Shown here piece by piece: positions 38,076 through 56,586 of a DNA stretch of 64,000 nucleotides; position 1 is the stretch's first letter, and each line of letters opens with the position of its first letter. The stretch comes from Streptomyces sp. NBC_01298 (GTDB lineage: Bacteria > Actinomycetota > Actinomycetes > Streptomycetales > Streptomycetaceae). Location: contig NZ_CP108414.1 in assembly GCF_035978755.1 (NCBI RefSeq), forward strand, positions 7,750,001-7,814,000, written 5' to 3'. Made by a program: the position numbers and the translations under genes. Under the pieces are notes generated by a model, which had not been told where the DNA came from, ran no database searches, and saw only the letters and a program-made list of their open reading frames with translations.

Positions 38076-38711
38076 TCAGACTGCCGGGGGGACCTCCGGC
38101 GCGACCTCGGGGAAGACGGGGGCGATCCCGAGGGCCGGCGCGATCGCCCGCCAGATCGTCGACTGAGCCGTGGCGAGGTCGATCCGGGGGTCCTCCAGCA
38201 TCAGCCGGTTGCCGAGGCCGTCGCACAGGGCCAGCACCAGCGTGCCCACCTCGGCGACGTCGCAGTCGGTGAACTCTCCGGAAGCGATGCCCCGTTCCAC
38301 GACCCCGGCGACCCACGCGTGCAGCTGGTCGTACAGGTCGACGGCGAGGTCCCGGGCCGCCGCGTCGCGCAGGGCGCGCACCCACAGCTCCTGCCAGAGC
38401 TTCCAGTCCTGGCGGAGTTCGGCGTCCGTGGGCAGCATGCTCCGTACGATCCGCGCCAGGACGGCGGCGGCCGGGAGCGAAGCGTCCTCGCTGCCGGTGT
38501 CCGTGCCGGTCTTGGCGAAAGAGTGCGTCATCGCCTCGGCGAAGAGCTTCTCGCGGGTGTCGAAGTGGTAGTGGAGCAGGGCCTTCGAGACACCCGCGTG
38601 CTCGGCGACCTTGCGCATGCTGACGTGCTCGAAGCCGATGTCGGCGATCACTTCGCACGCGGCCGTGAGGATTCGCTCACGCGTTTCGAGTGCCCGCTCG
38701 GCCTTGGTCAC
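38076..38711 (-). CDS. TetR-family regulator (BetI-like)
   Basis: A 211-aa repressor. The HTH is TRERILTAACEVIADIGFEHVSMRKVAEHAGVSKALLHYHFDTREKLF; the ligand domain (EVGTLVLALCDGLGNRLMLE) resembles the BetI-type C-terminal domain. GTG at 38711 with GGGGAG eight bases upstream. It is on the same strand as, and just beyond, the beta-oxidation arm of the amine island, so it is a candidate for the protein that binds the CTGACC..GGTCAG palindromes of the island. Its own upstream region shows no such palindrome. Confidence 0.9.
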   Translation of the reverse strand: MTKAERALETRERILTAACEVIADIGFEHVSMRKVAEHAGVSKALLHYHFDTREKLFAEAMTHSFAKTGTDTGSEDASLPAAAVLARIVRSMLPTDAELRQDWKLWQELWVRALRDAAARDLAVDLYDQLHAWVAGVVERGIASGEFTDCDVAEVGTLVLALCDGLGNRLMLEDPRIDLATAQSTIWRAIAPALGIAPVFPEVAPEVPPAV

Positions 38712-38860
38712 GTGGGCTGCTCCCCGGGTCGGCACCCGTCGAGTGGGGTGCGTGGGTGGGTGGGTGGAAGGGCCCCGGCGGCCCCGCCCGCCGGACCCCC
38801 ATCCTCGCGCATGAGGCGTCCGGGCTCCGGCCGCCGGGGCACCGCGGTCATGAAGAGCGG

Positions 38861-39721
38861 TCATGAATAGGTGTGGAAGCCCCGGCCCGTCTTGCGGCCG
38901 AGCAGGCCCGCGTCCACCATCCGCGCCAGCAAGGGCGGCGGTGCGTACAGCGGCTCCCGGTACTCCGCGTACATCGACCGGGCGATCGCCTGGACGGTGT
39001 CCAGTCCGATGAGGTCGGCCAGGGCCAGCGGCCCGAGCGGGTGCGCGCAGCCCAGGGTCATGCCCCGGTCGATGTCCTCGGCCGAAGCGGTCCGCGATGC
39101 GGCCATCCGGACGGCGGCCAGCAGGTACGGGACGAGGAGCGCGTTCACCACGAACCCTGCCCGGTCCTCGGCGTGGACCACCTGCTTGCCCAGCACGTCG
39201 GCGGCGAACTCCCCGGCGCGCCGGACGGTCTCCGCGGAGGTGAGCAGGGAGGGCACCAGCTCGACCAGGGGAAGCACCGGGACGGGATTGAAGAAGTGGA
39301 GGCCGACGACCTGCTCCGGCCGGGACGTTGCCGCCGCCAGCCGGATGACCGCGATGGAGGAGGTGTTCGTCGCGAGGACCGCGTCCCCGCGCCCGACGGT
39401 CCGGTCGAGCCGGGCGAAGACCTCCAGCTTCGCCCGCTCGTCCTCGGCCACCGCTTCGACCACGAGGTCCCGGTCGGTCATCCGGTCCATGTCCGTGGTC
39501 ATCACGATCCGGCCCAGAGCGGCTTCGCGGTCCGCGGTGGTGAGCTTTCCGGCGGCCGTGGCGCGGGCCAGGGAGCGGGTGATCCGCTCCAGGCCGGCGT
39601 CCGCGGCCCTCCGGTTCGACTCCACCACCACGACGTCCCGCCCGGCGCGGGCGCAGACCTCGGCGATCCCGGAGCCCATCAGGCCGCACCCCACGATCCC
39701 GACGCGTTCGACATCGGCCAT
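38861..39721 (-). CDS. 3-hydroxyacyl-CoA dehydrogenase
   Basis: A 286-aa NAD-dependent enzyme of the 3-hydroxybutyryl-CoA dehydrogenase type. Rossmann start VGIVGCGLMGSGIAEVCARA, NTSSIAVIRLAAAT, the catalytic-His motif GLHFFNPVPVLPLVELV, and the C-terminal domain RAGFVVNALLVPYLLAAVRM plus GCAHPLGPLALADLIGLD. It oxidises L-3-hydroxyacyl-CoA to 3-ketoacyl-CoA. ATG at 39721 with GAAGGGAAAG upstream. It is the last gene of the minus-strand arm, after two acyl-CoA dehydrogenases; no enoyl-CoA hydratase or thiolase gene is in the window. Confidence 0.94.
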   Translation of the reverse strand: MADVERVGIVGCGLMGSGIAEVCARAGRDVVVVESNRRAADAGLERITRSLARATAAGKLTTADREAALGRIVMTTDMDRMTDRDLVVEAVAEDERAKLEVFARLDRTVGRGDAVLATNTSSIAVIRLAAATSRPEQVVGLHFFNPVPVLPLVELVPSLLTSAETVRRAGEFAADVLGKQVVHAEDRAGFVVNALLVPYLLAAVRMAASRTASAEDIDRGMTLGCAHPLGPLALADLIGLDTVQAIARSMYAEYREPLYAPPPLLARMVDAGLLGRKTGRGFHTYS

Positions 39722-39734
39722 CGGTTCTTTCCCT

Positions 39735-39788
39735 TCGGATCTGTCGGATGCCCCGGATGTGCCGGATGCCTCGGATGCGTCGGATGCG
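39735..39788. repeat. Six 9-bp tandem repeats between two catabolic genes
   Basis: Six units close to [T/C]CGGATGCC fill most of the 71-bp gap between the acyl-CoA dehydrogenase stop and the dehydrogenase start. The unit length keeps the frame of the downstream gene open upstream of its start (Ser-x-x repeats), but there is no reason to think it is translated. A likely slippage site. Confidence 0.8.
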
Positions 39789-39792: not shown

Positions 39793-40968
39793 TCACACGG
39801 CCGACGGCATCCGCAGCACGCCCGTGCCGCGCTTGACGAGTTCGCCCGCGATGATCAGGCGCTGGATCTCGGAGGTGCCCTCCCAGATCCGGTCCACGCG
39901 CAGTTCGCGGTAGAGCCGCTCGACGGGGTACGAGCGGTCGTAGCCGCGGCCGCCGAAGATCTGCAGGCAGCGGTCGATGACCCGGCCGGACGCCTCGCTC
40001 GCCGACAGCTTGGCGATGGCGGCCTTCGCGTGCAGCGTCTTGCGGTCGAGGACGCCTTCGTCGGCCTCCCAGGCGACCTGGTGGGTGTAGGCGCGGTTGA
40101 CGGCGATGTCTACGGCGCAGTCGGCGAGCATGCCCTGGATCAGCTGGAAGTCGGCGATGGGGGAGCCGAACTGGCGGCGCTCGACCGCCCAGTCGCGGGC
40201 GAGTTCCAGGGCCCGCTCCGCCGCTCCGATCGTGCGTGCGGCGATCATCAGCCGTTCCTCGGTGAACCAGGAGCGGGTGATGTCGTAGCCGGTGCCCACT
40301 TCCCCCAGCACGGCGTCCGCGGGCAGGCGGACATCGGTGAAGGTGAACTCGGGGTGCTCGTAGACGAAGGTGTGCATCCAGCGGGGCACCCGGGTCATCT
40401 CGATGCCCGGGGTGTCCTTGTCGACGAGGAACAGGGTCGGTGCCCGCTCCTCCCCGGCGGCCGCGAGCACGATCATGAAGTCGGCGTGGTCGCCCACGGT
40501 GACGAACCACTTCTCGCCGTTCAGCACCCAGCCGCCGTCCCCGGTCCGCGTCGCCGTGGTCCGCAGGCTCTGCGGGTCCGAGCCCGCCTCGGGCTCGCTC
40601 ACCGCGTAGCAGTCGCGGCGCCGTCCCCGGATCACCGGGACGAGGTAGCGCTCGCGCTGCTCCGGCGTGCAGAAGGACAGGGCGTTGGCGGGACGCCACA
40701 CCATGTCCCACAGGGCGCCGGTGAGCCGTCCCAGTTCGGCCTGGACGGTGACCTGCTCCAGGATGCTCAGGCCGGCGCCGCCCCATTCCACGGGCATGTT
40801 GACGGCCTGGAGTCCGCTGTCGAGGACGGCGTCGCGGATCTCGGTGTGGGCCTGCGGGGGCAGCCCGTTGTTCTCCTCGCAGTCGAGCTCGTACTTCGTG
40901 ATGAAGCCGGTGAGGGCGCGCGCCGAGTCGCGGAGCTCTTCCTGACGGGCGGTGAGGCGGAAGTCCAT
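39793..40968 (-). CDS. Acyl-CoA dehydrogenase (first of a tandem pair)
   Basis: A 391-aa FAD enzyme. Typical blocks: MDFRLTARQEELRDSARALTG, WGGAGLSILEQVTVQAELGR, CYAVSEPEAGSDPQSLRTTA (flavin-binding), WVLNGEKWFVT, ERRQFGSPIADFQLIQGMLAD and IFGGRGYDRSYPVERLYRELRVDRIWEGT, with the catalytic Glu E363. It introduces a double bond into an acyl-CoA and passes electrons to an electron-transfer flavoprotein. Very close to its neighbour in the C-terminal 150 residues and diverged in the N-terminal half, suggesting duplication then change of substrate pocket. Confidence 0.95.
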   Translation of the reverse strand: MDFRLTARQEELRDSARALTGFITKYELDCEENNGLPPQAHTEIRDAVLDSGLQAVNMPVEWGGAGLSILEQVTVQAELGRLTGALWDMVWRPANALSFCTPEQRERYLVPVIRGRRRDCYAVSEPEAGSDPQSLRTTATRTGDGGWVLNGEKWFVTVGDHADFMIVLAAAGEERAPTLFLVDKDTPGIEMTRVPRWMHTFVYEHPEFTFTDVRLPADAVLGEVGTGYDITRSWFTEERLMIAARTIGAAERALELARDWAVERRQFGSPIADFQLIQGMLADCAVDIAVNRAYTHQVAWEADEGVLDRKTLHAKAAIAKLSASEASGRVIDRCLQIFGGRGYDRSYPVERLYRELRVDRIWEGTSEIQRLIIAGELVKRGTGVLRMPSAV

Positions 40969-41029: not shown

Positions 41030-42205
41030 TCAGGAGCGGCCGGGCAGCGCGAGTGCCCGCGTACCCCGCTTGACGAGCTCGTTGGCGATGATCAGGCGCT
41101 GGATCTCGGAGGTGCCCTCCCAGATCCGGTCGACGCGCAGTTCGCGGTACATCCGCTCGACGGGGTACGAGCGGTCGTAGCCGCGGCCGCCGAAGATCTG
41201 TACGCACCGGTCGATGACCCGACCCGCCGCCTCGCTCGCGGCGAGCTTCGCCGTCGACGCCTTGGCGTGCAGGGTCTTGGGGTCGGTGTGCGGCTGGTCG
41301 GCCTCCCAGGCGACCTGGTGGGTGTAGGCGCGGTTGACGGCGATGTCGACGGCGCAGTCGGCGAGCATGCCCTGGATCAGCTGGAAGTCGGCGATGGGGG
41401 AGCCGAACTGGCGACGGCCGACGGCCCAGTCGCGGGCGAGTTCGAGGGCCCGCTCCGCCGCTCCGACGGTCCGGGCGGCGATCATCAGCCGCTCGTCCGT
41501 GAACCACTCCTTCGTCAGCTCGTAGCCGTTGCCGACACCGCCGAGGACGTCCTCGTCGGCGACGAAGACATCGGTGAAGGTGAACTCGGGGTGCCCGTTC
41601 ACCGCGGAGTGCATGAACCGGGGGACCCGCGTCATCTCGACGCCCGCCGCACCCTTGTCCACGAAGAACAGCGTCGCGGCCCGCTCCGGGCCCGCATCGG
41701 CCTGCACCAGCAGGAAATCGGCGATGTCACCGCAGGTCACGAACCACTTCTCGCCGTTGAGCAGCCAGCCGCCCGCGGTGCGGGTCGCCGTACTCGTGCA
41801 CGAGCCGGGGTCCGAGCCCGCACCCGGTTCGGTGACGGCGAACGCGTCGAACCGCTCGCCCCGGATGACGGGCAGGAGGTACTTCTCGCGCTGCGCCCCG
41901 GTGCCGTGGGCGAGGACGTTCGCGGGCCGCCAGGGGATGTCCCAGAGGCAGTTGGTGACCTTGCCGAACTCCTCCTCGACGATGACCTGGTCCAGCAGGG
42001 ACAGGCCGGCCCCGCCCCAGGCGGCGGGCATGTTGATCGCGTAGACGCCGGCGTCCATGGCGGCGCGGGTCAGTTCGCGGACCGTCTCGGCGGGCAGCGG
42101 ACCGCCCGCTTCCTCGGACTGCTCCTCGTACCCCATCAGGAGGTGTGCGTAGGCGGCGGCGCGGGCCTTGAGGTCGGCCTGCTCGGGCGTGTAGCGGAAG
42201 TCCAC
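41030..42205 (-). CDS. Acyl-CoA dehydrogenase (second of a tandem pair)
   Basis: Also 391 aa, with the same architecture: MDFRYTPEQADLKARAAAYA, WGGAGLSLLDQVIVEEEFGK, AFAVTEPGAGSDPGSCTSTA, WLLNGEKWFVTCGD, RRQFGSPIADFQLIQGMLAD and YPVERMYRELRVDRIWEGT (E363). Equal length, 61 bp apart on the same strand, and long identical stretches in the C-terminal domain show a tandem duplication. The pair lies between an acyl-CoA synthetase and a hydroxyacyl-CoA dehydrogenase, so they act on the acyl-CoA made from the island's substrate. Confidence 0.95.
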   Translation of the reverse strand: MDFRYTPEQADLKARAAAYAHLLMGYEEQSEEAGGPLPAETVRELTRAAMDAGVYAINMPAAWGGAGLSLLDQVIVEEEFGKVTNCLWDIPWRPANVLAHGTGAQREKYLLPVIRGERFDAFAVTEPGAGSDPGSCTSTATRTAGGWLLNGEKWFVTCGDIADFLLVQADAGPERAATLFFVDKGAAGVEMTRVPRFMHSAVNGHPEFTFTDVFVADEDVLGGVGNGYELTKEWFTDERLMIAARTVGAAERALELARDWAVGRRQFGSPIADFQLIQGMLADCAVDIAVNRAYTHQVAWEADQPHTDPKTLHAKASTAKLAASEAAGRVIDRCVQIFGGRGYDRSYPVERMYRELRVDRIWEGTSEIQRLIIANELVKRGTRALALPGRS

Positions 42206-42272: not shown

Positions 42273-44366
42273 TCAGCCCAGGACGGCCCGTGCGTCGAGC
42301 GCCAGGGCGCCGCCGGGGCGGACCAGCAGCGGGTTGACCTCAAGCTCGGCGATCTCCGGATGCGCGGCGGCCACGGTCGTGATGCGTTCGATCACGTCGG
42401 CCGCGGCCGCCACGTCCACGGCCGGCCGGCCGCGGACACCCGACAGCAGGGCGGCGGTCCGCAGCCCCCGCAGCAGCTCCCCGGCCCGCCGCGCCGGTAC
42501 CGGCGCCAGCGCGAAGGCCACGTCGCGCAGGGTCTCGGTGAGGACCCCGCCGAGCCCGACCATGGCCACCGGTCCGAAGCGGGGGTCGCGGTTCACGCCC
42601 ACGATCAGCTCGATGCCGTCCGAGAGGTCGGCCATCGCCTCGACCGAGTACGAGCCGGGGCCGAGCCGGGCGCGCATGTCCCGGTAGGCGGCCAGGAGAT
42701 CGTCCCGGCCGGCCAGCCGCAGCGCCACGCCACCCGCGTCGGACTTGTGCAGGAGGTGCAGGGCCTTCAGTACGTACGGGCCCTCGAACTCCCCGGCCGC
42801 GGCCAGTGCTCCGGCCTCGTCGGTGACCTCGCGGGCCGGCGGGAACGGCACTCCGGCGGCGCCGAGCAGTCCGCGCACCGCGTGGTACCCCGGGTCCCGC
42901 AGCGGCGCGGCGGCGGCGGGCAGTGCGGCGAGCTCCGGGCCGGAGCGGGCCGCCCGGCGGGTCATCGCCGACAGCGCGCGGGCGGCGTCCTCCGTGGCGG
43001 CGAACACCGGTATCCCGGCCCCGGCCAGGACGCGGCAGCTCGGCGAGCGCGGATACATCGACTGCACCACCAGGGGTTTGGGTGACTCCGCGAGGCGGGT
43101 GACGATCTTCTCGGCGGCCCGGGTCTCACCCTCCGCGAGCACGGAGCCGCCCGCCTGCCCGCCGCCCAGGCCGCCCTCGGACGCCGCGTACCCGCCGAAG
43201 TAGCCCGTCATCAGCACCGCGTCGACCTCCTCGGCGGCGAGGAGGTGCCCGACCGCGTCGGCGTACGACAGGGGCCGCTGCTCGCCCATCCCCGCCAGGT
43301 CGACCGGATTGGCGACCGCCGACTGCTGCCACAGCACGGTCCGCAGCCCTGCCTGGGTCGCCTCCGCGAGCTCCGGCACGTCCAGCCCGGCGTCCTCGGC
43401 GGCGTCGGCCGCGATCGCCCCGTGGCCACCGCCGTCGGTGAAGACCGCGGTCCGGCGCCCTCCCGTACGAGGCCCGGGCCGACTGCTCACGGCGGCCAGT
43501 ACGACGGTCATCTCCCTGGGCGTGCGCACCAGTTCCACTCCCGCGTCGCGGCAGGCGGCGGCCACGACGTCGGCCGACGTGGTGAGCGCCCCGGTGTGCG
43601 AGCGGGCGCTGCGCGCCGAGGCGGAGCCGCGCCCGGCGGTGAGCAGGACCACCGGTTTGCCCGCCGCGGCGGCGGCCCCGGCGAAGGCCCTGCCGTCGCC
43701 GAAGTCCTCGGCGTACACGGCGATCGCGGTGGTGGCCTCGTGGCGGGCGCAGTCCTCGACGAGGTCGACGAGGGTGACGTCGGCCTGATTGCCGAGCGAG
43801 ACGAACCGGGAGAAGCCCAGACCGTGCGGAGCGCCGCGGAGCTGGAGTTCGAGGGCGAGGTTGCCGCTCTGGCTCAGCAGGGCGGTGCCGCCGGGCGCGA
43901 ATCGGTCCGAGGCGAGGTACAGCTCGGTCGTGTTGTCCGCGACGCCCAGGCAGTTGGGCCCGACGAGCACGGCTCCGGCCTCCCGGACCCTGGCGACGAC
44001 CGCGCGCTGGCGGGCCGCTCCCGCGGGGCCGGCCTCGGCGAAGCCGGCGGTGATGCCGACGATCGCCTTCGCCCCGCAGGCCAGGGCGTCCTCCACGGCG
44101 GCTTCGAAGCCGCTGCCGGGGACGGAGATCACCACCAGCTCGACGGGTTCGCCGATCGCCGAGAGGGACGGGGCCGCCCGTCTGCCGAGGACGGTGCCAC
44201 CGCGCCGGTTCACCAGGTGCACGGGGCGCCGGCCATCGGCGCGGAGCGCCTGGGAGGCCACGGCGTGGCCGTACTTGGCCGGATCGTCGCTGGCACCGAC
44301 CACGGCGACCGAGCGGGGGTCGAAGAGAGCGGTCAGATCACGGGGAGCGGTCAGATCACGTCCCAT
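42273..44366 (-). CDS. ADP-forming acetyl/acyl-CoA synthetase (NDP-forming, fused subunits)
   Basis: A 697-aa fused protein. N-terminal CoA-binding and ligase-CoA domains: LFDPRSVAVVGASDDPAKYG, GPNCLGV, LLSQSGNLALELQ, SARSHTGALTTS with the phosphohistidine, and FTDGGGHGAIAADAAE. The C-terminal ATP-grasp part begins near HAVRGLLGAAGVPFPPAREV, with GPYVLKALHLLHKSDAGGVAL and ELEVNPLLVRPGGALALDAR. It would activate a carboxylic acid to its CoA thioester. ATG at 44366 lies one base after the ferredoxin stop. It supplies substrate to the two acyl-CoA dehydrogenases next in the operon. Confidence 0.92.
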   Translation of the reverse strand: MGRDLTAPRDLTALFDPRSVAVVGASDDPAKYGHAVASQALRADGRRPVHLVNRRGGTVLGRRAAPSLSAIGEPVELVVISVPGSGFEAAVEDALACGAKAIVGITAGFAEAGPAGAARQRAVVARVREAGAVLVGPNCLGVADNTTELYLASDRFAPGGTALLSQSGNLALELQLRGAPHGLGFSRFVSLGNQADVTLVDLVEDCARHEATTAIAVYAEDFGDGRAFAGAAAAAGKPVVLLTAGRGSASARSARSHTGALTTSADVVAAACRDAGVELVRTPREMTVVLAAVSSRPGPRTGGRRTAVFTDGGGHGAIAADAAEDAGLDVPELAEATQAGLRTVLWQQSAVANPVDLAGMGEQRPLSYADAVGHLLAAEEVDAVLMTGYFGGYAASEGGLGGGQAGGSVLAEGETRAAEKIVTRLAESPKPLVVQSMYPRSPSCRVLAGAGIPVFAATEDAARALSAMTRRAARSGPELAALPAAAAPLRDPGYHAVRGLLGAAGVPFPPAREVTDEAGALAAAGEFEGPYVLKALHLLHKSDAGGVALRLAGRDDLLAAYRDMRARLGPGSYSVEAMADLSDGIELIVGVNRDPRFGPVAMVGLGGVLTETLRDVAFALAPVPARRAGELLRGLRTAALLSGVRGRPAVDVAAAADVIERITTVAAAHPEIAELEVNPLLVRPGGALALDARAVLG

Positions 44367-44367
44367 G

Positions 44368-44559
44368 TCACTTCTCCACTCGGAGCGCGGAGTTGGGGCA
44401 GCTCGCGGCGCAGTCGCGCGCCGCTTCCTCGGCGCCGGGCGGGACGGCGACGGCGATGACCTTCGCGTAGCCCCACTCGTCGAGTTCGACCAGGTGGGGT
44501 GCGTGTTCCTGGCACAGTCCGTAGCCCTGGCAGCGGGTGGAGTCCAGCAGGAGGTTCAC
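44368..44559 (-). CDS. Small [3Fe-4S]-type ferredoxin
   Basis: A 63-aa ferredoxin, MNLLLDSTRCQGYGLCQEHA with C10 and C16 and a late CAASCPNSAL (C50, C54). The C-x5-C..CP pattern is that of the single-cluster [3Fe-4S] ferredoxins that feed cytochrome P450s and oxygenases in Streptomyces. GTG start at 44559 with AGGA six bases upstream; it overlaps the stop of the NuoF-like gene. The pairing suggests the flavoprotein reduces this ferredoxin. No P450 is in the window, so the Rieske oxygenase of the divergent arm is the likely acceptor. Confidence 0.93.
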   Translation of the reverse strand: MNLLLDSTRCQGYGLCQEHAPHLVELDEWGYAKVIAVAVPPGAEEAARDCAASCPNSALRVEK

Positions 44560-45866
44560 GGTGTTCCTTTCAGCACGGGCGAGCGGGGTACGGTCCTGTC
44601 GCCCACGGCCGTGCCGGTGATCTCCGGTACGGCCACGGTGAGGCGGCGCCCTTGACCGCCCGCGGGGGAGGAGACGGCGGCGCAGCCGGGGCAGGGCCCG
44701 CGCAGGTGGGACCGGACGGGTTCGGGGAAGGAGCGCAGCAGGCTCCCGGCGATGCCCGCGGCGGCGTCGAGCAGGCCGCACGCGCCGCGCCCGGGCAGGC
44801 CCCGCGACCACCGGTCCAGGTGGAGGAGGGTGTCGGGGCCGGCGGTCCCCGTGGCGAGGGCGTACACGGCGTCGCGGACGGCCGCGGTGCCCGAGACGCA
44901 GACCCCGCACTGCCGTGCGCTCTGCGCCGCGAGGTGGCCGACGGCATCGGCGGCGGTGCTCACCGGGCAGGCTCCGGCGGCGAGGAAGCGGATCGCCCCG
45001 CAGCCCAGTGCCGTGCCCGCCGCGGTGAGCGCGCCGGGTTCGAGGGGGAGATCCAGGGCGCGGGCGTCGATGAACCCGCCGAACAGTCCGCCCATCAGGG
45101 CCCCGGCCGCGTCCGGGACGCCGAGAGCGGCGGCCAGTTCACGCAGGGGGACGCCGTAGGGGACCTCGGTGAGGACGGGGGCGGCGCCGCCGCCGGACAG
45201 GGTCACCAGGGTGGAGCGGGCGATCGACTGCCGCAGGCCGGGGCTGGTGGCGATGAGGGCGATTCGGGCGAGGGTCTCGACGTTGGAGACGAGGGTCGGC
45301 GCGCCGCCGACGCCGCGCTCGAAGGGGCGGGGAGGCTTGGCGGTGGGCAGGGCCGGCCCGCCGTCGATCCGGCGGACGACCGCGCTCTCCTCCCCGGCGA
45401 CGTAGGTGTGCGCGGTCTCGACGACCTCGACGGGAAGGTCCGGCTCCCGTTCGGCTAGGGCCCGGCGGACGCGGTCGGCGGCCACCGGGTCCGAGAGGTA
45501 GACGTAGCCGCGTACGGCGCCGGTGACCGCGGCGGCGCGGGCGAGGCCGTCGAGGACCAGATGGGGCCTGGCCCGCAGCAGCCAGCGGTCCTTGACCGAG
45601 CCGGGCTCGCCCTCCTCGCCGTTCGCCACCACCACCGGGACGCCGCCGCGCTCGCGGACGGCACGCAGCTTGACGGCGGCCGGGAAGCCGGCCCCGCCGC
45701 GCCCGCGCAGACCGGATGAGGCGAGGTGGCCCAGCAGCTCGTCCGGGCCGGTGGCTTCGGCGTAGCCGCCGGTGGCGAGGTACGCCTCGACGCCTTCCGG
45801 CGCGCCCGGAGCGGCTCCGAGTACGGAACCCGGTGGCTGCCCCGCAGGGAGTCGAATCGCGGTCAT
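44556..45866 (-). CDS. NuoF-like NADH:acceptor flavoprotein (stand-alone)
   Basis: A 436-aa homologue of the NADH-binding subunit of complex I: GLRGRGGAGFPAAVKLRAV and VVVANGEEGEPGSVKDRWLL for FMN/NADH, AHTYVAGEESAVVRRIDGG, and the SLBB region. The Fe-S binding C-terminal domain has C320 and C323 (RQCGVC) and C363 (GACGLL), but the third ligand of the usual CxxCxxC motif is missing. No other complex I subunit is nearby. It overlaps the ferredoxin gene, so it probably moves electrons from NADH to that ferredoxin. ATG at 45866 overlaps the stop of the gene before. Confidence 0.87.
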   Translation of the reverse strand: MTAIRLPAGQPPGSVLGAAPGAPEGVEAYLATGGYAEATGPDELLGHLASSGLRGRGGAGFPAAVKLRAVRERGGVPVVVANGEEGEPGSVKDRWLLRARPHLVLDGLARAAAVTGAVRGYVYLSDPVAADRVRRALAEREPDLPVEVVETAHTYVAGEESAVVRRIDGGPALPTAKPPRPFERGVGGAPTLVSNVETLARIALIATSPGLRQSIARSTLVTLSGGGAAPVLTEVPYGVPLRELAAALGVPDAAGALMGGLFGGFIDARALDLPLEPGALTAAGTALGCGAIRFLAAGACPVSTAADAVGHLAAQSARQCGVCVSGTAAVRDAVYALATGTAGPDTLLHLDRWSRGLPGRGACGLLDAAAGIAGSLLRSFPEPVRSHLRGPCPGCAAVSSPAGGQGRRLTVAVPEITGTAVGDRTVPRSPVLKGTP

Positions 45867-46306
45867 CGGATGCTTTCTGTGCGGGAGTTGGAGTGCAGTG
45901 TCCGAACGGCACGCTCAAGTGCGGCGCGGTCCGAGGCGGTTCGGGCGTATCCCGGTCCCGAGAGCCCGACGAGCATGCGGTGGTGGTCGAGGACCACCTC
46001 GCCGGCGAGCAGGGCGGCCGGGTGGTCGCCCTGCCCGGCGCCGTCGGCGGCGGCGGTCACCAGCGCGGCGACTTCGGCCAGGTAACGCAGCCAGTCGCGC
46101 CGGCCGCCCCGCAGGATCAGGTGCTCCAGGCGGCGTCGCTCGGAGGCGACGAGCTCGGCCGGTGGCGGCGGTGCGGGGTCTGTGGGCCCCGTGGGTTCCG
46201 TAGGGGGATGGTGCGAGGAAGCGCGCAGGGCGGCGACCGCAGCGGGCAGTTCCCGCTCCGGTTCGGGGGTGAGCCCGAGCCAGTCCAGACGCCGACGACC
46301 GCTCAT
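45863..46306 (-). CDS. Small protein of unknown function, first gene of the left arm
   Basis: A 147-aa mostly helical soluble protein: MSGRRRLDWLGLTPEPEREL, a Pro/Thr-rich insert, then RLEHLILRGGRRDWLRYLAE and a HHRMLVGLSGPGYART block. No family is recognised. ATG start at 46306, and its stop overlaps the start of the NuoF-like gene (ATGA), so it is a real member of the operon. It might be an assembly or regulatory partner of the flavoprotein, an inference from position only. Confidence 0.65.
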   Translation of the reverse strand: MSGRRRLDWLGLTPEPERELPAAVAALRASSHHPPTEPTGPTDPAPPPPAELVASERRRLEHLILRGGRRDWLRYLAEVAALVTAAADGAGQGDHPAALLAGEVVLDHHRMLVGLSGPGYARTASDRAALERAVRTLHSNSRTESIR

Positions 46307-49108: not shown

Positions 49109-49109
49109 C

Positions 49110-50033
49110 ATGCCACGACCTGATCTTCGGGGTCCGCGGAGCCGATCCCTCCCGCCCCCTCCGCCACGCGCAGGACGTGCGGGGCAGGAGGCGAGGCTGT
49201 GGACCTGGTTCATGCTCCCGGGCACCCTGTGGATGACCGGGTTCCTCGTCGCGTCCCTGCTCCTGGTGGCCACCCTCGCCCTCGGCACCACCGACCCGCT
49301 CGGGAACCCGCGCTTCGGGCTCAACTTCGAGAACTTCGCCGCGCTCGCCGATCCGGCCTACCGCACCGTCCTGCTGCGCTCGCTCGGCTACGCGCTGATC
49401 ACCTGCCTCATCTGCCTGGCCGTGGCCTACCCGGTCGCCTACGCCATCGCCCTGCGCGGCGGCCGCTTCAAGAGCCTGCTGATCGCCGCGATCGTCGTGC
49501 CGTTCTTCGCCAACTACCTGGTACGGATGTACGGCTGGTCCGTGGTGCTCTCCGATGACGGGCCGGTGCTGAAGGCCCTGCGCGCGATCGGCCTCGCCGA
49601 CACCGACACCAAGATCCTCCAGACCGCCCCGGGAGTCATCGCCGGCCTCGTCTACGGCTTCGTCGTCTTCATGATCATCCCGCTGTACGCGGCCATGGAG
49701 CGGATGGACACCTCGCTCATCGAGGCCGGGCGGGACCTCTACGGCGGCCCCTTGAGGACCTTCCTCTTCGTCACCGTGCCCGCCACCCGCCAGGGCGCGG
49801 CGGCGGGCTGCGTCCTCGTCTTCCTGCCCGCCATGGGCGACTTCGTCAGCGCACAGCTCATGGGAGGCCCCGACCAGATCATGATCGGCAACCTGATCCA
49901 GGACAAGTTCTTCCAGGGCCAGAACTGGCCGCTCGGCTCGGCCCTGACCATCCTGCTGATGGCGGTCCTGCTCCTCGGGATGCTCGGCTACCTGAGGCGC
50001 ACCCGCAAGGACGAGGCGGAGGCGGTCCGATGA
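49110..50033 (+). CDS. potB: Polyamine-type ABC transporter permease (PotB-like)
   Basis: A 307-aa inner membrane permease with six main segments, beginning WTWFMLPGTLWMTGFLVASLLL. The cytoplasmic EAA loop is DTSLIEAGRDLYGGPLRTFLFVTVP, which docks on the ATPase. PotB proteins pair with PotC. ATG at 49110 follows the binding-protein stop by one base, and the end overlaps the PotC gene start (ATGA). Confidence 0.94.
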   Translation: MPRPDLRGPRSRSLPPPPPRAGRAGQEARLWTWFMLPGTLWMTGFLVASLLLVATLALGTTDPLGNPRFGLNFENFAALADPAYRTVLLRSLGYALITCLICLAVAYPVAYAIALRGGRFKSLLIAAIVVPFFANYLVRMYGWSVVLSDDGPVLKALRAIGLADTDTKILQTAPGVIAGLVYGFVVFMIIPLYAAMERMDTSLIEAGRDLYGGPLRTFLFVTVPATRQGAAAGCVLVFLPAMGDFVSAQLMGGPDQIMIGNLIQDKFFQGQNWPLGSALTILLMAVLLLGMLGYLRRTRKDEAEAVR

Positions 50034-50959
50034 CCCCGCGCCCGGTCCCCCGTACGGCACCTTCGCTTCGTACGGCACCGTCACCCGGTACGGCTCCGTC
50101 ACCCGGTACGGCTCCGTCACCTCGTACCCCGCGCGGCAGGCGGCGCCGCGGCGCAGACCGCCGGCCCCGGTTCGCCATCGCCGTCACCGCGGTCTTCTTC
50201 GCGCTGCTCTACCTCCCCGTCGGCGTCGTCGTCCTCTTCTCCTTCAACGCGCAGAAGTCCCTCACCGTCTTCGACGGCGCGAGCCTGCGCTGGTACCGCG
50301 CGTTCCTCCGCGACGACGCACTCGTCGGCTCGCTCGGCATGAGCCTGAGGGTGTCCCTGGTCGCGATGGCCGTCTCGCTCGTCCTCGGAGTGCTCCTCGC
50401 CCTCGGACTGGTCCGCGGCCGCGGCCGCCTCGGCTCCTTCGCCGGCCTGGTCATGCTCGTACCGCTGGTCACCCCGGAGATCGTCACCGGCGTCGCATCG
50501 ATGATGCTCTTCAAGGGCCTCGGCATCACCCTGTCCACCACCACCGTGATGCTCGCCGAGGTCACCTTCTCCATCTCCTACGTCACGGTCATCCTGCGCT
50601 CCCGCATCGCGGCCCTCAACCCGGAGGTCGAGGAGGCGGCGATGGACCTCGGAGCCACCCGCCGCCAAGCCCTGCGCCTGGTGACCCTGCCCGCACTGCT
50701 CCCCGGCATCCTCGCGTCCGGGGTACTGATCTTCGCCCTGGTCTTCGACGACTTCGTCCTCGCCTACTTCACCACCGGCGTCGACCCGCAGCCGCTTTCC
50801 GTCCGCATCTACTCGGCGATCCGGTTCGGCGTCCAGCCCACCATCAACGCCGTCGGCACCCTGATGCTCGTCGGGTCCATCGCCCTCATCGCCTTCGCCC
50901 TTGCCATCCCGCGCCTCTTCGGCCGCCGGGGCGGCCTCGATCTGCTCCCGGGGAAGTGA
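50030..50959 (+). CDS. potC: Polyamine-type ABC transporter permease (PotC-like)
   Basis: A 309-aa permease with six segments and the EAA loop PEVEEAAMDLGATRRQALRLVTLP. The N-terminal tail is unusual: about 45 residues containing four near-identical TAPSPG-type units encoded by 18-bp tandem repeats (50051-50122) ahead of the first membrane segment (FAIAVTAVFFALLYLPVGVVVLF). The start ATG overlaps the PotB stop. It forms the channel with PotB. Confidence 0.93.
   Translation: MTPRPVPRTAPSLRTAPSPGTAPSPGTAPSPRTPRGRRRRGADRRPRFAIAVTAVFFALLYLPVGVVVLFSFNAQKSLTVFDGASLRWYRAFLRDDALVGSLGMSLRVSLVAMAVSLVLGVLLALGLVRGRGRLGSFAGLVMLVPLVTPEIVTGVASMMLFKGLGITLSTTTVMLAEVTFSISYVTVILRSRIAALNPEVEEAAMDLGATRRQALRLVTLPALLPGILASGVLIFALVFDDFVLAYFTTGVDPQPLSVRIYSAIRFGVQPTINAVGTLMLVGSIALIAFALAIPRLFGRRGGLDLLPGK
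50051..50122 (+). repeat. Four 18-bp tandem repeats in the PotC N-terminal tail
   Basis: Units of about CGTACGGCACCGTCACCC repeat four times with few changes and stay in frame, encoding (R/G)TAPS(P/L). They extend the cytoplasmic tail without touching the membrane domain. Length may vary between strains. Confidence 0.85.
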
Positions 50960-50964
50960 CACCG

Positions 50965-52050
50965 ATGCACCACCCGAACCCACAGCCCGCCGTCCGGCTC
51001 GACCGGGTCGCCAAGCGGTACCGCACCACGGACACCTACGCCGTCCACGACGTCACCCTCGACATCGCCCCGGGCGAGTTCTTCTCCCTCCTCGGCCCCT
51101 CCGGCTGCGGGAAGACCACCCTCCTGCGCATGACCGGAGGCTTCACCGACCCCACGGAGGGCAGCGTCCTGCTCGGCGGCGAGGACGTCACGGGTCTGCC
51201 GCCCAACAAGCGCGACGTCAACACCGTCTTCCAGAGCTACGCCCTCTTCGACCACCTCTCGCTCGCCGACAACGTGGCCTTCGGCCTCAAGCGCAGCGGC
51301 GTGCCCCGCGCCGAGATCCGCCAACGGGTCGGCGACATGCTGGACCTCGTACAGCTCGGGGAACTGGCCGGCCGCAAACCGCCCACCCTCTCCGGCGGCC
51401 AGCGCCAGCGCGTCGCCCTCGCCCGCGCCCTGGTCAACCGGCCCCAAGTGCTGCTCCTGGACGAGCCGTTGGCCGCCCTCGACCTGAAACTGCGGCGCCG
51501 GATGCAGGTCGAGCTCAAGCAGATCCAGCGGGAGGTCGGCATCACCTTCGTCTTCGTCACCCACGACCAGGACGAGGCCCTGACCATGTCGGACCGCCTC
51601 GCCGTCATGAACGAGGGCCGCATCGAGCAGTGCGGCACGCCGGAGGACGTGTACGAGCGCCCCACGAGCAGCTTCACGGCCACCTTCATGGGCACCTCCA
51701 ACCTGGTCCCGGGGACCTACCGCTCCGGTCGCGTCGTCCTCGACCAGGGGCCGGCCCTGCCCGTCGGTCCCCGGTCCGGCGTCCCCGACGGCAGCCGGGT
51801 CAGCCTCTCGATCCGCCCCGAGAAGATCTGGCTCTCCGGATTCGAACCGGGCATGGCCAAGGTCGGCGGAGTCGTCCGGGAGACCGTCTACTCCGGCCCG
51901 ACCACCACCTACCTCATCGAACTGGCCCCCGGCGTCACGGTGTCCGTACTGGAGCAGAACACCGTCCGCTCCCGCATGGAGGACCGCTGGAGCGGCGGCG
52001 AGCAGGTCGAGATCGGCTGGAACCCCGAACACTGCCTGGTCCTCGACTGA
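50965..52050 (+). CDS. potA: Polyamine-type ABC transporter ATP-binding protein (PotA-like)
   Basis: A 361-aa ATPase: Walker A LLGPSGCGKTTLLRM, Q-loop FQSYALFDHLSLADNVAFGLK, signature LSGGQRQRVALARAL, Walker B VLLLDEPLAALDLKLRR and switch FVTHDQDEALTMSDRLAV, followed by a TOBE domain (VSLSIRPEKIWL). It powers uptake through PotBC. I chose ATG 50965, with GGGGAAG nine bases upstream; GTG 50956 would overlap the PotC stop. The stop codon lies in the first copy of a repeated operator-like sequence. Confidence 0.95.
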   Translation: MHHPNPQPAVRLDRVAKRYRTTDTYAVHDVTLDIAPGEFFSLLGPSGCGKTTLLRMTGGFTDPTEGSVLLGGEDVTGLPPNKRDVNTVFQSYALFDHLSLADNVAFGLKRSGVPRAEIRQRVGDMLDLVQLGELAGRKPPTLSGGQRQRVALARALVNRPQVLLLDEPLAALDLKLRRRMQVELKQIQREVGITFVFVTHDQDEALTMSDRLAVMNEGRIEQCGTPEDVYERPTSSFTATFMGTSNLVPGTYRSGRVVLDQGPALPVGPRSGVPDGSRVSLSIRPEKIWLSGFEPGMAKVGGVVRETVYSGPTTTYLIELAPGVTVSVLEQNTVRSRMEDRWSGGEQVEIGWNPEHCLVLD

Positions 52051-52138: not shown

Positions 52139-53455
52139 ATGAACCACGACGTCATCGTGCTCGGCGCCGGACTGGCGGGTCTCGCCGCCGCGCGCGACCT
52201 GGCCGCGGGCGGGGCCGACGTCCTCGTCGTCGAGGCACGCGACCGCGTCGGCGGACGCGTCGAACAGACCACCCTCCCCGACGGCCGGCTGGTTCAGCTC
52301 GGCGGGGAGGTGGTGGGCCGCGCCCACACCGCCTACACCGCCCTGGTCGCGGAACTGGGCCTGACCCTGGTCCCCAGCTACGTCTCCGAGCCCGGCGCCC
52401 TCGTCCGCGCCACCGCCGAAGGAGTCTCCGCCACGGATCCGCCCCACTGGTTCGGCCCCGGTGACGACTCCTGCCACGCCAAGGTCACCGCCGCCTTCAC
52501 GGTGCTCGCCGCGACCGTCGACCCCGCCGACCCCTGGTCCCACCCCGAGGCCGCGCACCTCGACCGGCTGTCCGTCGGCACCTGGCTCCGTGCCCAGGGC
52601 GCCACCCAGGCCGTCGTCCGCCTCTGGGAGATCGGCCAACTCGCCCTCGCCGACGGCTCCTGCGAACGGACCTCCCTGCTCGCGGCCCTCCGCAAACACG
52701 CCGCCGTACCCGGCACCGGCCACTACGAGTACGAGGCGTGGGAGGGCCTGCGCGTCGCCGAGGGCTCGGCCACCGTGGCCCTGCGCATGGCCGAGGCCCT
52801 CGGCGGCCGGATCCGTACGGGCTCACCCGTCGAGGCGGTCGCGATACACCGGCCCGGCCGCAGCTCCGTACGCCTGGCCGGTGGCGAAACCCTCACCGCC
52901 GCCGCCGTGGTCAGCGCGCTCCCGGTGGGGCCGCTCCGGGCGGTCGCCGTCACCGGGGTCACGGACGAACGCCTCTCCTCCCTGCACCGCCAACGCCACG
53001 CCCTCGCGGCCAAGTTCACCGCCGCCTACGCCCGGCCCTTCTGGCGCGACCGGGGCCTCAGCGGCCTCTCCGAAAGCGAAGGGATCCTCGGCAGCACCTG
53101 GCCGCAGAGCGAAGGCATCCTCTCCGCCCTCGTCCCGCCCGAACGCTACGGCGTCCTCCTCGGTACGCCCGCACCCCTGCGCACCCCCGAACTGCTGGCC
53201 GACATCGCGCGCCTCTACGGCGACGAGGCCAACCGGCCGCTCGCCGCGTTCATCCGCATGTGGGGCACCGACCCGTGGACCCAGGGCTACGTCACCCAGT
53301 GGACCCCCGGCGACGTCATGGCCGTCGGCCCCCGCCACGGCACCCACGAACCCCCCTTCTACGTCTGCGGATCCGACCAGTGGGTGGCCGGCTACATGGA
53401 AGGCGCCGTCCGCACCGGACGAGCCGCCGCCGAGGAGGCCCTGCGCCGTGGCTGA
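52139..53455 (+). CDS. Flavin monoamine oxidase family protein
   Basis: A 438-aa FAD amine oxidase. N-terminal dinucleotide motif HDVIVLGAGLAGLAAARDLAAGGADVLVVEARDRVGGR, then GGEVVGRAHTAYTALVAELG, and the C-terminal flavin contact PFYVCGSDQWVAGYMEGAVRTGRAAAEEAL. It oxidises an amine to an imine/aldehyde with H2O2 or another acceptor. ATG at 52139 follows GAAGGAA. The next gene, an aldehyde dehydrogenase, overlaps by eight bases, so the aldehyde is oxidised in the same unit. Confidence 0.92.
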   Translation: MNHDVIVLGAGLAGLAAARDLAAGGADVLVVEARDRVGGRVEQTTLPDGRLVQLGGEVVGRAHTAYTALVAELGLTLVPSYVSEPGALVRATAEGVSATDPPHWFGPGDDSCHAKVTAAFTVLAATVDPADPWSHPEAAHLDRLSVGTWLRAQGATQAVVRLWEIGQLALADGSCERTSLLAALRKHAAVPGTGHYEYEAWEGLRVAEGSATVALRMAEALGGRIRTGSPVEAVAIHRPGRSSVRLAGGETLTAAAVVSALPVGPLRAVAVTGVTDERLSSLHRQRHALAAKFTAAYARPFWRDRGLSGLSESEGILGSTWPQSEGILSALVPPERYGVLLGTPAPLRTPELLADIARLYGDEANRPLAAFIRMWGTDPWTQGYVTQWTPGDVMAVGPRHGTHEPPFYVCGSDQWVAGYMEGAVRTGRAAAEEALRRG

Positions 53456-54911: not shown

Positions 54912-55361
54912 GCGGGTCGTCGGCGCCAGCGGGGTCGTCCAGGGCCAGGAGCGTCAGCGGTACGTTGCCGCGTACTGCCTGCGAGTAGGGGCAGACCGCG
55001 TCCCCCGGTGCAGCAGCGGCTGGAGGTCTGCCGCCCGCCACCCGGGCAGGCTGACGGTGAGGGCCACCGCCAGACCGTAGCCCGCAGGCGTGTCCGTGGT
55101 GCCGAGCTGCACCTCGCACGCCACGCGTGCGGCGGAGGCGTCCGCCCCGAACTCGGCGGCGACCTCCGCGAGCGCGGAGGTGAAGCAGGCGGCGAAACCG
55201 GCCGCGAACAGCTGCTCGGGGTTGGTGGTGCCGGGGACGTTCTTGCGGGGCGGGGCGAGACGGACGTCCACGCGGCCGTCTTCGGTGCGGACGGATCCGG
55301 TGCGGCCCCCGGCGGCGTGCGCGGTCGTCCGGTACAGGCTGCGGGTGAGTGGCACGGTCAT
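54901..55361 (-). pseudogene. ohr: Ohr/OsmC-family organic hydroperoxide resistance gene, frameshifted
   Basis: From ATG 55361 the frame reads LTRSLYRTTAHAAGGRTGSV, NPEQLFAAGFAACFTSAL (first peroxidatic Cys) and VALTVSLPGWRAADLQPLLH, a normal Ohr. Then a one-base loss in a run of five C at 55002-55006 (plus strand) shifts it to another frame; the missing end, VCPYSQAVRGNVPLTLLALD with the second Cys, is intact in the shifted frame and stops at 54901. Because the change lies in a homopolymer it may be a sequencing error. If real, the protein loses its resolving Cys. Confidence 0.85.
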
Positions 55362-55551
55362 GGCGTTCGGCCCATCTTGCTCGACGAGGACGCTGCCCGG
55401 GTGCGGACAGCGGAAGGCGCCGCTGGTGCGGCACCTCGCGCGTCGTCGTGCGTAACCGGGTACGGCGCATCTCGTCCGGGGCCTGGGTTCGGCCGCCGGA
55501 CAATCTAGCAACGGAGACGGCCGGCCGGGGCGTCGCCCGCGGTGACCCTCC

Positions 55552-56577
55552 TCACCCGTGGCAGGCCGCGTCGCGCTCCTCGGCCCGGGGCCGTTGCCGG
55601 CTGCGGTACGCCCCCGGAGGCATGCCCTCCCACCGGTTGAAGGCGCGGACCAGGGCCGTCGCACCGCTCAGGCCGACGAGCGGCGCGATCCGGTCCAGCG
55701 GCAGGTCCGTGGTCTCCAGCAGCCGCCCGGCCCGGCCGTGGCGGGCGGTGTCGAGGAGCGCGCGCCACGACGTGCCCTCCGCGTGCAGGGCCCTGCGCAG
55801 GGTACGGACGCTGAGGCTGAGCTCCTTGGCGGGGCCGTCGGGGCCCGCGTCCGCGAGCGGGGCCTCCTCCAGCCACTGCCGTACGCGCTCGGCGACGGTC
55901 GAGGTCACGGCCGTGGACAGCCGGCGCAGGAGCCGGTCGGCGTAGGCCCGGTGCAGGGCGTTGAGCGCCGGGTCGTAGAGCGGGCGGCGCCGGTCGAGGT
56001 CGTCGTCGGCGACCGTGATCGCGGTCTCCGGGGCATCGAAGACGACGGGGCAGCCGAGGACGTCGGCGTACGGCTCCGCCGAGCCCCTGCGGGGGTGGGT
56101 GAAGGACACGGCCAGGGGCGCCCAGCCGTCGCCGGCGATCCAGCGGCCCGCCCGCACCATGCTGCTGACGACCGCCTCCACCTGCTGCGGGTGCATGGCC
56201 TCCGGCGCGACGTTCGGCCGGTAGCAGACCCGCCCGACGCCGGCGCGGCGCTGCAGGGTCACCGCGCCCGCCTGGCTCACCAGGGGGTGGTAGCGCTCGG
56301 CCGCCCGCGCGGCGTCCGCGAGGCTGGCACACGTGAGGACGAGGTGGCCCAGGATGTGCAGTCCCTCGGGCCTGATGCGGTCGCCCACGAGGAGTCCGGT
56401 GTGCGGGCCGGCGCCCACGGCGCCCAGTACTTCGTCCCACAGGGCACGCATCTCGCCGAACTCCAGCCGGTCCGTGGGCAGGGCCCGGGCGGCCGACCCG
56501 CCGGTGCCCTCCGCCGTGGCGCTCAGGACGGCGAGGGCGTAGCACGCGGCGACTGAGGGCGGCTCGATGGCTGACAC
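55552..56577 (-). CDS. AraC-family transcriptional regulator (arabinose-binding-like domain)
   Basis: A 341-aa regulator: an N-terminal PF12625-type ligand region (about residues 15-210, with RPEGLHILGHLVLTCASLADA and SFTHPRR) and a C-terminal HTH_18 (ELSLSVRTLRRALHAEGTSWRALLD, IAPLVGLSGATALVRAFNRWEGMPPGAYRSR). GTG 56577 is the longest start; there is no good ribosome site, so initiation may be leaderless or further in. The palindrome CTGACACATCGGTCAG overlaps this start, and direct repeats lie in the divergent region toward the DJ-1 gene. It lies at the right border of the amine island. Confidence 0.9.
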   Translation of the reverse strand: MSAIEPPSVAACYALAVLSATAEGTGGSAARALPTDRLEFGEMRALWDEVLGAVGAGPHTGLLVGDRIRPEGLHILGHLVLTCASLADAARAAERYHPLVSQAGAVTLQRRAGVGRVCYRPNVAPEAMHPQQVEAVVSSMVRAGRWIAGDGWAPLAVSFTHPRRGSAEPYADVLGCPVVFDAPETAITVADDDLDRRRPLYDPALNALHRAYADRLLRRLSTAVTSTVAERVRQWLEEAPLADAGPDGPAKELSLSVRTLRRALHAEGTSWRALLDTARHGRAGRLLETTDLPLDRIAPLVGLSGATALVRAFNRWEGMPPGAYRSRQRPRAEERDAACHG

Positions 56578-56586
56578 ATCGGTCAG
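56571..56586. promoter_or_regulatory. Imperfect copy of the island operator at the AraC gene start
   Basis: CTGACACATCGGTCAG matches 14 of 16 positions of CTGACCGATCGGTCAG at 46551-46566. It overlaps the start codon of the AraC-type gene, so binding would directly block its transcription or initiation. Confidence 0.6.

What the first reader, a model, noticed from the sequence alone, without database searches (positions are those of the whole stretch)
38076..56586. Divergent amine-catabolic island combining a Rieske oxygenase, polyamine ABC importer, amine oxidase and a beta-oxidation arm
Seen: two divergent arms around 46.5 kb. The right arm encodes a Rieske oxygenase, PotABCD-type importer, flavin amine oxidase and aldehyde dehydrogenase; the left arm encodes an unknown small protein, NuoF-like flavoprotein, ferredoxin, ADP-forming acyl-CoA synthetase, two acyl-CoA dehydrogenases and a hydroxyacyl-CoA dehydrogenase. 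Known: Glu at the Rieske bridging position marks carnitine/betaine-type oxygenases. Inferred: one pathway that imports an N-methylated amine or polyamine, removes the nitrogen and degrades the carbon chain as CoA esters. I do not know a described pathway with this gene set.
Basis: partly seen in the sequence, partly recalled or inferred. Interest (0 to 1): 0.78.

Follow-up and report, generated by a model that had tools for sequence, protein, structure and literature searches.

The report
Conserved Rieske amine-degradation gene island
A set of fifteen neighbouring genes, kept together in several soil bacteria, appears to form one pathway that imports a nitrogen compound and breaks it down, and it includes a small uncharacterised protein that travels with an oxygen-using enzyme.

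Summary
The island is real. All 15 genes, TetR-HAD-ACAD2-ACAD1-ACS-ferredoxin-NuoF-p147 <> Rieske-PotD-B-C-A-amine oxidase-ALDH, keep order and orientation in 11 of 11 uncut orthologous Streptomyces loci; 2 more are cut by contig ends. Both arms share a promoter region with two TetR-type palindromes, 57 bp apart in 13 of 13 loci that hold it, in two sequence types that follow the TetR clades. Rearranged or reduced versions lie in Streptacidiphilus, Mycobacterium and Thermoleophilia-type genomes. The 'unknown small protein' (p147) is the surprise: a five-helix family (W-L-x-L-T-P-E-x-E) found in 18 of 18 named island loci (one partial; 11 of the 18 supplied profile rows) and in none of 62 other Rieske loci. 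The NuoF subfamily, outside islands, sits with a ferredoxin and Rieske proteins in 11 of 11 loci, suggesting an NADH-NuoF-ferredoxin-Rieske electron chain. Most likely function: uptake and breakdown of an N-methylated or polyamine-like amine through an acid and its CoA ester. The substrate is not shown. All paper searches failed; novelty rests on recall.

The parts
38076..38711 (-). TetR-family regulator, BetI-type C-terminal domain; island-specific repressor (inferred)
   Evidence: PF00440/PF13977; conserved in all 11 uncut Streptomyces loci; BetI equivalog cut-off not reached
38861..39721 (-). 3-hydroxyacyl-CoA dehydrogenase (HAD)
   Evidence: PF02737/PF00725; conserved in all 11 uncut loci
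39793..40968 (-). acyl-CoA dehydrogenase 2 (ACAD2)
   Evidence: PF00441/PF02770/PF02771; no NCBIfam equivalog cut-off reached
41030..42205 (-). acyl-CoA dehydrogenase 1 (ACAD1); catalytic-Glu motif WEGTSEIQR present (residue role recalled)
42273..44366 (-). ADP-forming acyl-CoA synthetase (ACS)
   Evidence: PF13380/PF13607/PF13549; nearest solved: 4-hydroxybutyrate- and 3-hydroxypropionate-CoA ligases; a DMSP lyase 7cm9 is fourth
44368..44559 (-). small ferredoxin, cysteine pattern CxxYxxC...CxxxCP ([3Fe-4S]-type by recall)
   Evidence: PF13459
44556..45866 (-). NuoF-like NADH:FMN flavoprotein subfamily; CGVCVSGT where NuoF has CGxCxPC (recalled), i.e. third cluster cysteine absent
   Evidence: PF01512/PF10589; alignment; signature scan
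45863..46306 (-). p147: small all-helical protein, family motif W-L-x-L-T-P-E-x-E; constant companion of the island Rieskes
   Evidence: no Pfam or NCBIfam hit for the window protein
46550..46567 (.). perfect TetR-type palindrome GCTGACCGATCGGTCAGC, operator 1 (inferred)
46607..46624 (.). operator 2 (3 mismatches), 57 bp from operator 1 (inferred)
46725..47912 (+). Rieske non-heme iron oxygenase alpha subunit; [2Fe-2S] ligands C88 H90 C108 H111, bridging E212, iron ligands H215 H220 D343 (roles recalled)
   Evidence: PF00355/PF00848; alignment; nearest solved: carnitine monooxygenase 6y9c/6y8j
47978..49108 (+). PotD-like polyamine-binding protein
   Evidence: PF13416; putrescine/spermidine-binding proteins nearest; pocket residues
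49110..50033 (+). PotB-like permease
   Evidence: PF00528; Pot name from gene order and recall
50030..50959 (+). PotC-like permease
   Evidence: PF00528; Pot name from gene order and recall
50956..52050 (+). PotA-like ATPase
   Evidence: PF00005, PF08402 TOBE_2
52139..53455 (+). flavin amine oxidase, nearest to putrescine oxidase but without one of its loops
   Evidence: PF01593
53574..54911 (+). aldehyde dehydrogenase, nearest to gamma-aminobutyraldehyde dehydrogenase
   Evidence: PF00171

Best explanation
The island is one catabolic system for an N-substituted amine, most likely an N-methylated amine or polyamine-like cation of the C4-C5 diamine / gamma-butyrobetaine class. Shown by comparison: the genes belong together and share a divergent promoter region with conserved palindromes. 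Inferred steps: (1) PotABCD imports the cation. (2) The Rieske oxygenase, with p147 as its dedicated partner, removes an N-substituent or cleaves a C-N bond; its electrons come from NADH through the NuoF-like flavoprotein and the small ferredoxin in Streptomyces, and through the ferredoxin and another reductase in Mycobacterium. (3) The amine oxidase and ALDH turn a terminal amine into a carboxylate. (4) The acyl-CoA synthetase makes the CoA ester; the two acyl-CoA dehydrogenases and the HAD (with a hydratase and thiolase encoded elsewhere) run beta-oxidation. (5) The TetR protein blocks both arms until a pathway intermediate binds it. My estimates: single pathway 0.9; p147 works with the Rieske 0.75; NuoF-ferredoxin feeds the Rieske 0.6; N-methylated or polyamine-like substrate 0.6.
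For: Same 15-gene order in 11 of 11 uncut Streptomyces loci; palindrome pair 57 bp apart in 13 of 13 loci that hold the region, two box types that follow the TetR clades. Rieske plus ACS plus ACAD plus TetR recurs in Streptacidiphilus, Mycobacterium, Thermoleophilia-type genomes, G321 and G374. p147 in 18 of 18 named island loci (11 of them supplied rows of the profile, 4 more are the same contigs as profile rows) and in 0 of 62 other Rieske loci; a plain motif scan gives the same picture. In the genus 15 of 121 genomes have p147: 13 with it next to the Rieske orthologue, one (G063) with the two at ends of separate contigs, one (G085) cut at a contig end before the Rieske. The closest non-island NuoF relatives lie beside a ferredoxin and within about 2.2 kb of a Rieske ferredoxin-like protein in 11 of 11 loci, 0 of 6 for more distant NuoF; L083 has NuoF-ferredoxin-Rieske oxygenase in a row. 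Amine link: nearest solved relatives are putrescine oxidase, gamma-aminobutyraldehyde dehydrogenase, polyamine-binding proteins, carnitine monooxygenase; the four proteobacterial sister Rieskes sit by class III aminotransferases (3 of 4), DAO oxidases and GcvT-like demethylases (2 of 4 each); a Parasedimentitalea plasmid has Rieske + Pot-like permeases and ATPase (32-44% to the window's) + Oxidored_FMN protein near gcvT and lpdA.
Against: No substrate was tested. NuoF is missing from all three mycobacterial islands, and neither NuoF nor ferredoxin was found in L114-L118 (short ferredoxins could be missed and some of these contigs are short), so that electron route is not universal. Within the held stretches Pot genes are missing beside the Rieske in L111 and L115-L118, the amine oxidase in L097 and L115-L118, the ALDH in these and in L113 and L114, so the amine-to-acid steps are not part of the shared core. 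PotD of the Streptomyces and Mycobacterium islands keeps the acidic pocket of polyamine binders, which speaks for a polycation more than for a zwitterionic betaine; in L097 and L114 that pocket differs. The mycobacteria-like NuoF loci L084-L093 share one neighbourhood, so the 11 of 11 count holds perhaps two independent cases. Four Rieskes of the same clade (L119-L122) have no detectable p147. The Sphingobium plasmid relative has no Pot genes.
Confidence: 0.6

Rival explanations
1. The NuoF-ferredoxin pair is the electron acceptor of the two acyl-CoA dehydrogenases (in place of ETF), not the donor of the Rieske enzyme.
For: In Streptomyces the pair lies in the ACAD/ACS arm, with gene ends that touch or overlap; no ETF gene among the island's 15; ACADs also lie near the NuoF gene in most of the loci L084-L093.
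Against: Outside islands the closest NuoF relatives sit with Rieske proteins in 11 of 11 loci, once directly before a Rieske oxygenase. L114-L118 have ACADs but no NuoF or ferredoxin was found there. No other Rieske reductase is encoded in the island.
Confidence: 0.25
2. The substrate is an ordinary non-methylated polyamine (putrescine, cadaverine, spermidine) and the Rieske enzyme hydroxylates carbon in a later step.
For: Pot importer with polyamine-type pocket residues; putrescine-oxidase-like and gamma-aminobutyraldehyde-dehydrogenase-like enzymes.
Against: The amine oxidase lacks the loop that holds the diamine-binding Glu of putrescine oxidase (residue role recalled), beta-oxidation is not needed for GABA (recalled), and GcvT-like demethylases near two sister Rieskes point to methyl groups.
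Confidence: 0.25
3. The two arms are unrelated neighbours that serve different substrates.
For: In the distant loci arms differ in content, and NuoF, Pot, amine oxidase and ALDH can each be absent.
Against: Complete conservation in 11 of 11 uncut Streptomyces loci, shared operator region, and Rieske, ACS and ACAD kept together in G321 and G374, whose families differ from the window's.
Confidence: 0.04

Closest known systems
Carnitine monooxygenase CntA / glycine betaine monooxygenase GbcA (Rieske oxygenases)
   Same: Nearest solved structure by sequence and best NCBIfam match GbcA; Rieske cluster ligands, bridging Glu and iron ligands kept
   Different: GbcA score 127.5 against a cut-off of 670; no CntB/GbcB-type reductase gene among the 15 island genes; carries p147 and CoA-pathway genes; separate clade from the Acinetobacter rows of the tree, which I take to be CntA (that name recalled)
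Putrescine utilisation by PotABCD, putrescine oxidase and gamma-aminobutyraldehyde dehydrogenase
   Same: The six right-arm genes after the Rieske gene resemble this set
   Different: Amine oxidase lacks a putrescine-oxidase loop and PotD has changed pocket residues; a Rieske enzyme and a CoA pathway are added
Aerobic gamma-butyrobetaine / carnitine beta-oxidation (recalled)
   Same: CoA ligase, acyl-CoA dehydrogenase and hydroxyacyl-CoA dehydrogenase together with a quaternary-amine-type Rieske oxygenase
   Different: The crotonobetainyl-CoA dehydrogenase model is matched far below its cut-off (190 and 183.9 against 540); importer is of the polyamine type
NuoF / HydB / HoxF NADH-binding subunits
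   Same: FMN and NADH domains
   Different: Below the NuoF cut-off (162.6 against 558.65); third cysteine of the cluster motif absent and an extra C-terminal CxxC in 12 of 13 aligned rows (L110 differs there and looks frame-shifted)

Membership tests
CntA/GbcA-type Rieske monooxygenase | Rieske [2Fe-2S] ligands CxH...CxxH and 2-His-1-carboxylate iron site with bridging Glu | tested here: met
   C88 H90 C108 H111, E212, H215, H220, D343 invariant in 8 aligned sequences; roles recalled
CntA/GbcA-type Rieske monooxygenase | Curated GbcA model cut-off | tested here: not met
   127.5 bits against 670
CntA/GbcA-type Rieske monooxygenase | Adjacent CntB/GbcB-type FNR reductase gene | tested here: not met
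   Not among the 15 island genes; a reductase elsewhere in the genome was not looked for
CntA/GbcA-type Rieske monooxygenase | Activity on carnitine, gamma-butyrobetaine or glycine betaine | not testable with these tools
   needs biochemistry
PotABCD polyamine importer | Binding protein, two permeases and one ATPase with TOBE domain side by side | tested here: met
PotABCD polyamine importer | Polyamine pocket residues (E. coli PotD numbering, recalled) | tested here: inconclusive
   W34, D for E36, F for Y37, D168, E171, W229, D257, Y293 kept; T35 to A, S83 to T, Y85 to K and W255 to N
Putrescine oxidase | Loop with the Glu that binds the distal amine (recalled) | tested here: not met
   six-residue gap in all 17 island amine oxidases aligned with 3rha
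NuoF (complex I) | Four-cysteine N3 cluster motif CGxCxPC...C (recalled) | tested here: not met
   CGVCVSGT; the pattern CGxCxPC was found in none of the loci scanned, CGxCxxGT/S in the window and L083-L093
BetI choline repressor | BetI equivalog cut-off | tested here: not met
   58.6 bits against 201.3
ADP-forming acyl-CoA synthetase | CoA-binding, ligase and ATP-grasp domains in one chain | tested here: met
   no substrate-specific equivalog cut-off reached

The most novel reading that the evidence does not exclude
p147 is a previously undescribed, obligate small helical subunit (neither a beta subunit nor a Rieske ferredoxin) of a distinct Rieske oxygenase class, and in Streptomyces this class draws its electrons from a NuoF-type FMN/iron-sulphur NADH dehydrogenase through a [3Fe-4S]-type ferredoxin: a redox arrangement that I do not know for Rieske oxygenases, in a pathway that joins N-dealkylation to CoA-dependent beta-oxidation.
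Probability: 0.35. Interest if true: 0.72.

Novelty: new variant of a known kind. Interest (0 to 1): 0.56.

Why it matters
If right, it adds a Rieske oxygenase class with its own small partner protein and an unusual electron-transfer chain, and a genetically tractable catabolic island in Streptomyces whose substrate could be found by one growth and binding screen. The p147 motif gives a simple marker for finding further members.

Tried and rejected
Rejected: two unrelated neighbouring operons; bridging Glu as a substrate marker (Glu in all 58 of 88 rows where the motif was found); reading the guanidine-III riboswitch at the island's right edge as part of the system (it precedes an Ohr/OsmC-like gene and lies outside the conserved block); putrescine oxidase in the strict sense.

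Literature could not be used: the paper search failed, paper reading. No paper was seen in any form; statements on known enzymes are recalled. The claim that the system is undescribed therefore has no search behind it.
Full report
What is there. The window (Streptomyces-like; named Streptomyces genomes share the island) holds two divergent arms around an intergenic region at 46307-46724. Left, reading outward: p147 (45863-46306), NuoF-like flavoprotein (44556-45866), ferredoxin (44368-44559), ADP-forming acyl-CoA synthetase (42273-44366), ACAD1 (41030-42205), ACAD2 (39793-40968), HAD (38861-39721), TetR (38076-38711). Right: Rieske oxygenase (46725-47912), PotD, PotB, PotC, PotA (47978-52050), amine oxidase (52139-53455), aldehyde dehydrogenase (53574-54911). 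Families come, start sites.

One unit. In a genus sample of 121 genomes (own genome included) 14 have a Rieske orthologue at 79% identity or more; the other matches listed at E 1e-40 were 39% or less. I fetched the 13 other loci plus 3 of the distant ones. In 11 of 11 uncut orthologous loci all 15 genes stand in the same order and orientation; L045 and L047 are cut by contig ends and keep the genes they can. In L048 four genes match in two pieces, so some may be broken or misassembled. None of the 3 distant Rieske loci (L049-L051) has the island. As far as the fetched 20-kb stretches reach, the flanking genes tested are shared only with the nearest relative L036 (a 42% response-regulator match in L037 apart). 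The intergenic region has two palindromic boxes around a -35-like TTGAC, 57 bp apart in 13 of 13 loci that hold the region (L047 is cut). In one clade the first box reads GCTGACCGATCGGTCAGC or close to it (5 loci), in the other CTAACTAATTAGTCAGC (8 loci); the second clade has the more distant TetR (63-66% against 83-96%; no TetR gene in the cut L045). This is what a co-evolving repressor and operator pair would look like; binding is inferred.

Wider distribution. G321 (L097) has PotD-B-C-A, TetR, Rieske, p147, ACS, enoyl-CoA hydratase, ACAD, second ACS and an Oxidored_FMN protein. G374 (L190) has p147-ACAD-ACS-HAD against Rieske, FAD oxidoreductase, TetR, PotA and an amine oxidase. The shared core is therefore Rieske + p147 + ACS + ACAD + TetR; importer, amine oxidase, ALDH, HAD, ferredoxin and NuoF come and go.

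p147. The window protein has no Pfam or NCBIfam match. The aligned family of 24 has 13 invariant columns, among them W9 L10 L12 T13 P14 E15 E17. A profile of these 24 found p147 in 18 of 18 named island loci L101-L118 (L105 only a part, at a contig end) and in L097, and in 0 of the 62 loci L119-L180 at E below 0.5. Eleven of the 18 and L097 supplied profile rows, and four more are the same contigs as profile rows, so only L105, L111 and L112 are new to it; the plain motif scan, which needs no profile, agrees. Whole-genome searches: 15 of 121 genus genomes and 5 of 396 phylum genomes. The five phylum genomes (three of them Streptomyces already counted) carry it beside a Rieske gene. In the genus 13 of 15 do; in G063 the two lie near the ends of separate contigs and in G085 the left arm begins at a contig end (L191). 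In L116, L117 and L097 the p147 start overlaps the Rieske stop. AlphaFold gives a five-helix bundle (mean pLDDT 84.2) without a confident structural relative. This pattern fits a dedicated partner of the oxygenase; the biochemical role is inferred.

Rieske tree. In a tree of 88 rows the 22 island Rieskes and four proteobacterial ones (L119-L122) form one branch (support 99/98). The p147 label needs two changes on the tree, against 19.8 on average for shuffled labels: one gain and one loss, or two gains. The four without p147 lie next to class III aminotransferases (L119, L120, L121), DAO oxidases and GcvT-like proteins resembling TMAO and DMSP demethylases (L120, L121), an acyl-CoA synthetase (L120), PotA/PotD (L121) and ACADs (L122). 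A more distant relative on a Parasedimentitalea plasmid (34% identity) lies with Pot-like permeases and ATPase (32-44% to the window's), a second Rieske, a solute-binding protein and an Oxidored_FMN protein, near gcvT and lpdA; by contrast the Sphingobium plasmid relative (38%) has no Pot genes but an enoyl-CoA hydratase and an FAD oxidoreductase nearby. Only these 2 of the 19 plasmid records with a match were looked at.

Electron supply. The NuoF-like protein keeps the FMN and NADH motifs (recalled) but has CGVCVSGT where NuoF has CGxCxPC (recalled), and in 12 of 13 island rows an extra C-terminal CxxC. Of 396 phylum genomes 144 have some NuoF match at E 1e-40; I fetched 17 of these neighbourhoods (the 18th, G321, was fetched for its Rieske). 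The 11 closest (47-52% identity, L083-L093) share the CGxCxxGT signature, have a ferredoxin gene alongside and a Rieske ferredoxin-like protein within about 2.2 kb; the 6 more distant (L094-L096, L098-L100) have neither signature nor that protein, though 4 of them have a ferredoxin. In L083 NuoF, ferredoxin and a Rieske oxygenase follow one another. Since L084-L093 share one gene neighbourhood, this is perhaps two independent cases. ACADs are near most of these loci too. I read it as moderate support for NADH-NuoF-ferredoxin-Rieske.

Substrate. By sequence the nearest solved proteins are CntA for the Rieske, putrescine and spermidine binders for PotD, putrescine oxidase for the amine oxidase, gamma-aminobutyraldehyde dehydrogenase for the ALDH, hydroxyacid-CoA ligases for ACS. 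PotD of the Streptomyces, Streptacidiphilus and Mycobacterium islands keeps the acidic and most aromatic pocket residues of E. coli PotD; T35, Y85 and W255 are changed, and L097 and L114 differ more (residue roles recalled). The amine oxidase lacks a six-residue loop of putrescine oxidase in all 17 island copies aligned (L121 was left out as a different enzyme). No curated substrate-specific cut-off is reached by the proteins scanned. I therefore commit only to a class: an N-methylated amine or polyamine-like cation, degraded through an acid and its CoA ester.

Limits. No experiment, no literature (all paper calls failed), and no protein database beyond the genome sets named. Novelty is a judgement from recall.

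Noticed in passing
window 55437-55499 (-): Guanidine-III riboswitch (43.7 bits, cut-off 36) just upstream of an Ohr/OsmC-like gene (start about 55360, -; family by eye) that appears frameshifted near its 3' end here; the relative L036 has the riboswitch (572-635) and an intact 150-aa frame (711-1163). A guanidine switch before such a gene is unusual as far as I recall.
   Followed up: partly
window 623-845 (+): Cobalamin riboswitch (87.5 bits) ahead of an 821-aa reading frame at 888-3353.
   Followed up: no
window 56570-56587: A third operator-like palindrome (3 mismatches) at the start of the AraC-type gene 55552-56577; its counterpart in L036 lies outside the fetched stretch.
   Followed up: partly
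L084-L093: Conserved cluster: amidohydrolase-like genes, Rieske ferredoxin-like protein, alpha/beta hydrolase-like protein, NuoF-like subfamily and ferredoxin; names by eye except the Rieske and NuoF motifs.
   Followed up: partly
L111 1896-4742, L112 67-1935: In two Mycobacterium species the island lies next to a gene that looks like an amino-acid decarboxylase (by eye); in the third (L113) the neighbourhood is different, so the insertion site varies.
   Followed up: no
L190 7800-9122 (-): In G374 the Rieske gene closest to p147 seems to be only a C-terminal remnant (51% over 9% of the length) followed by a second, nearly full Rieske (31%).
   Followed up: no
L100 (G000:C1:376000-395999): The window's genome has a second, more distant NuoF-ferredoxin pair (40% and 37%) without the CGxCxxGT signature.
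   Followed up: partly
L115: A contig titled Bifidobacterium breve (MAG) carries an island with the same gene layout as the Thermoleophilia contig L116; probably a mislabelled bin.
   Followed up: no
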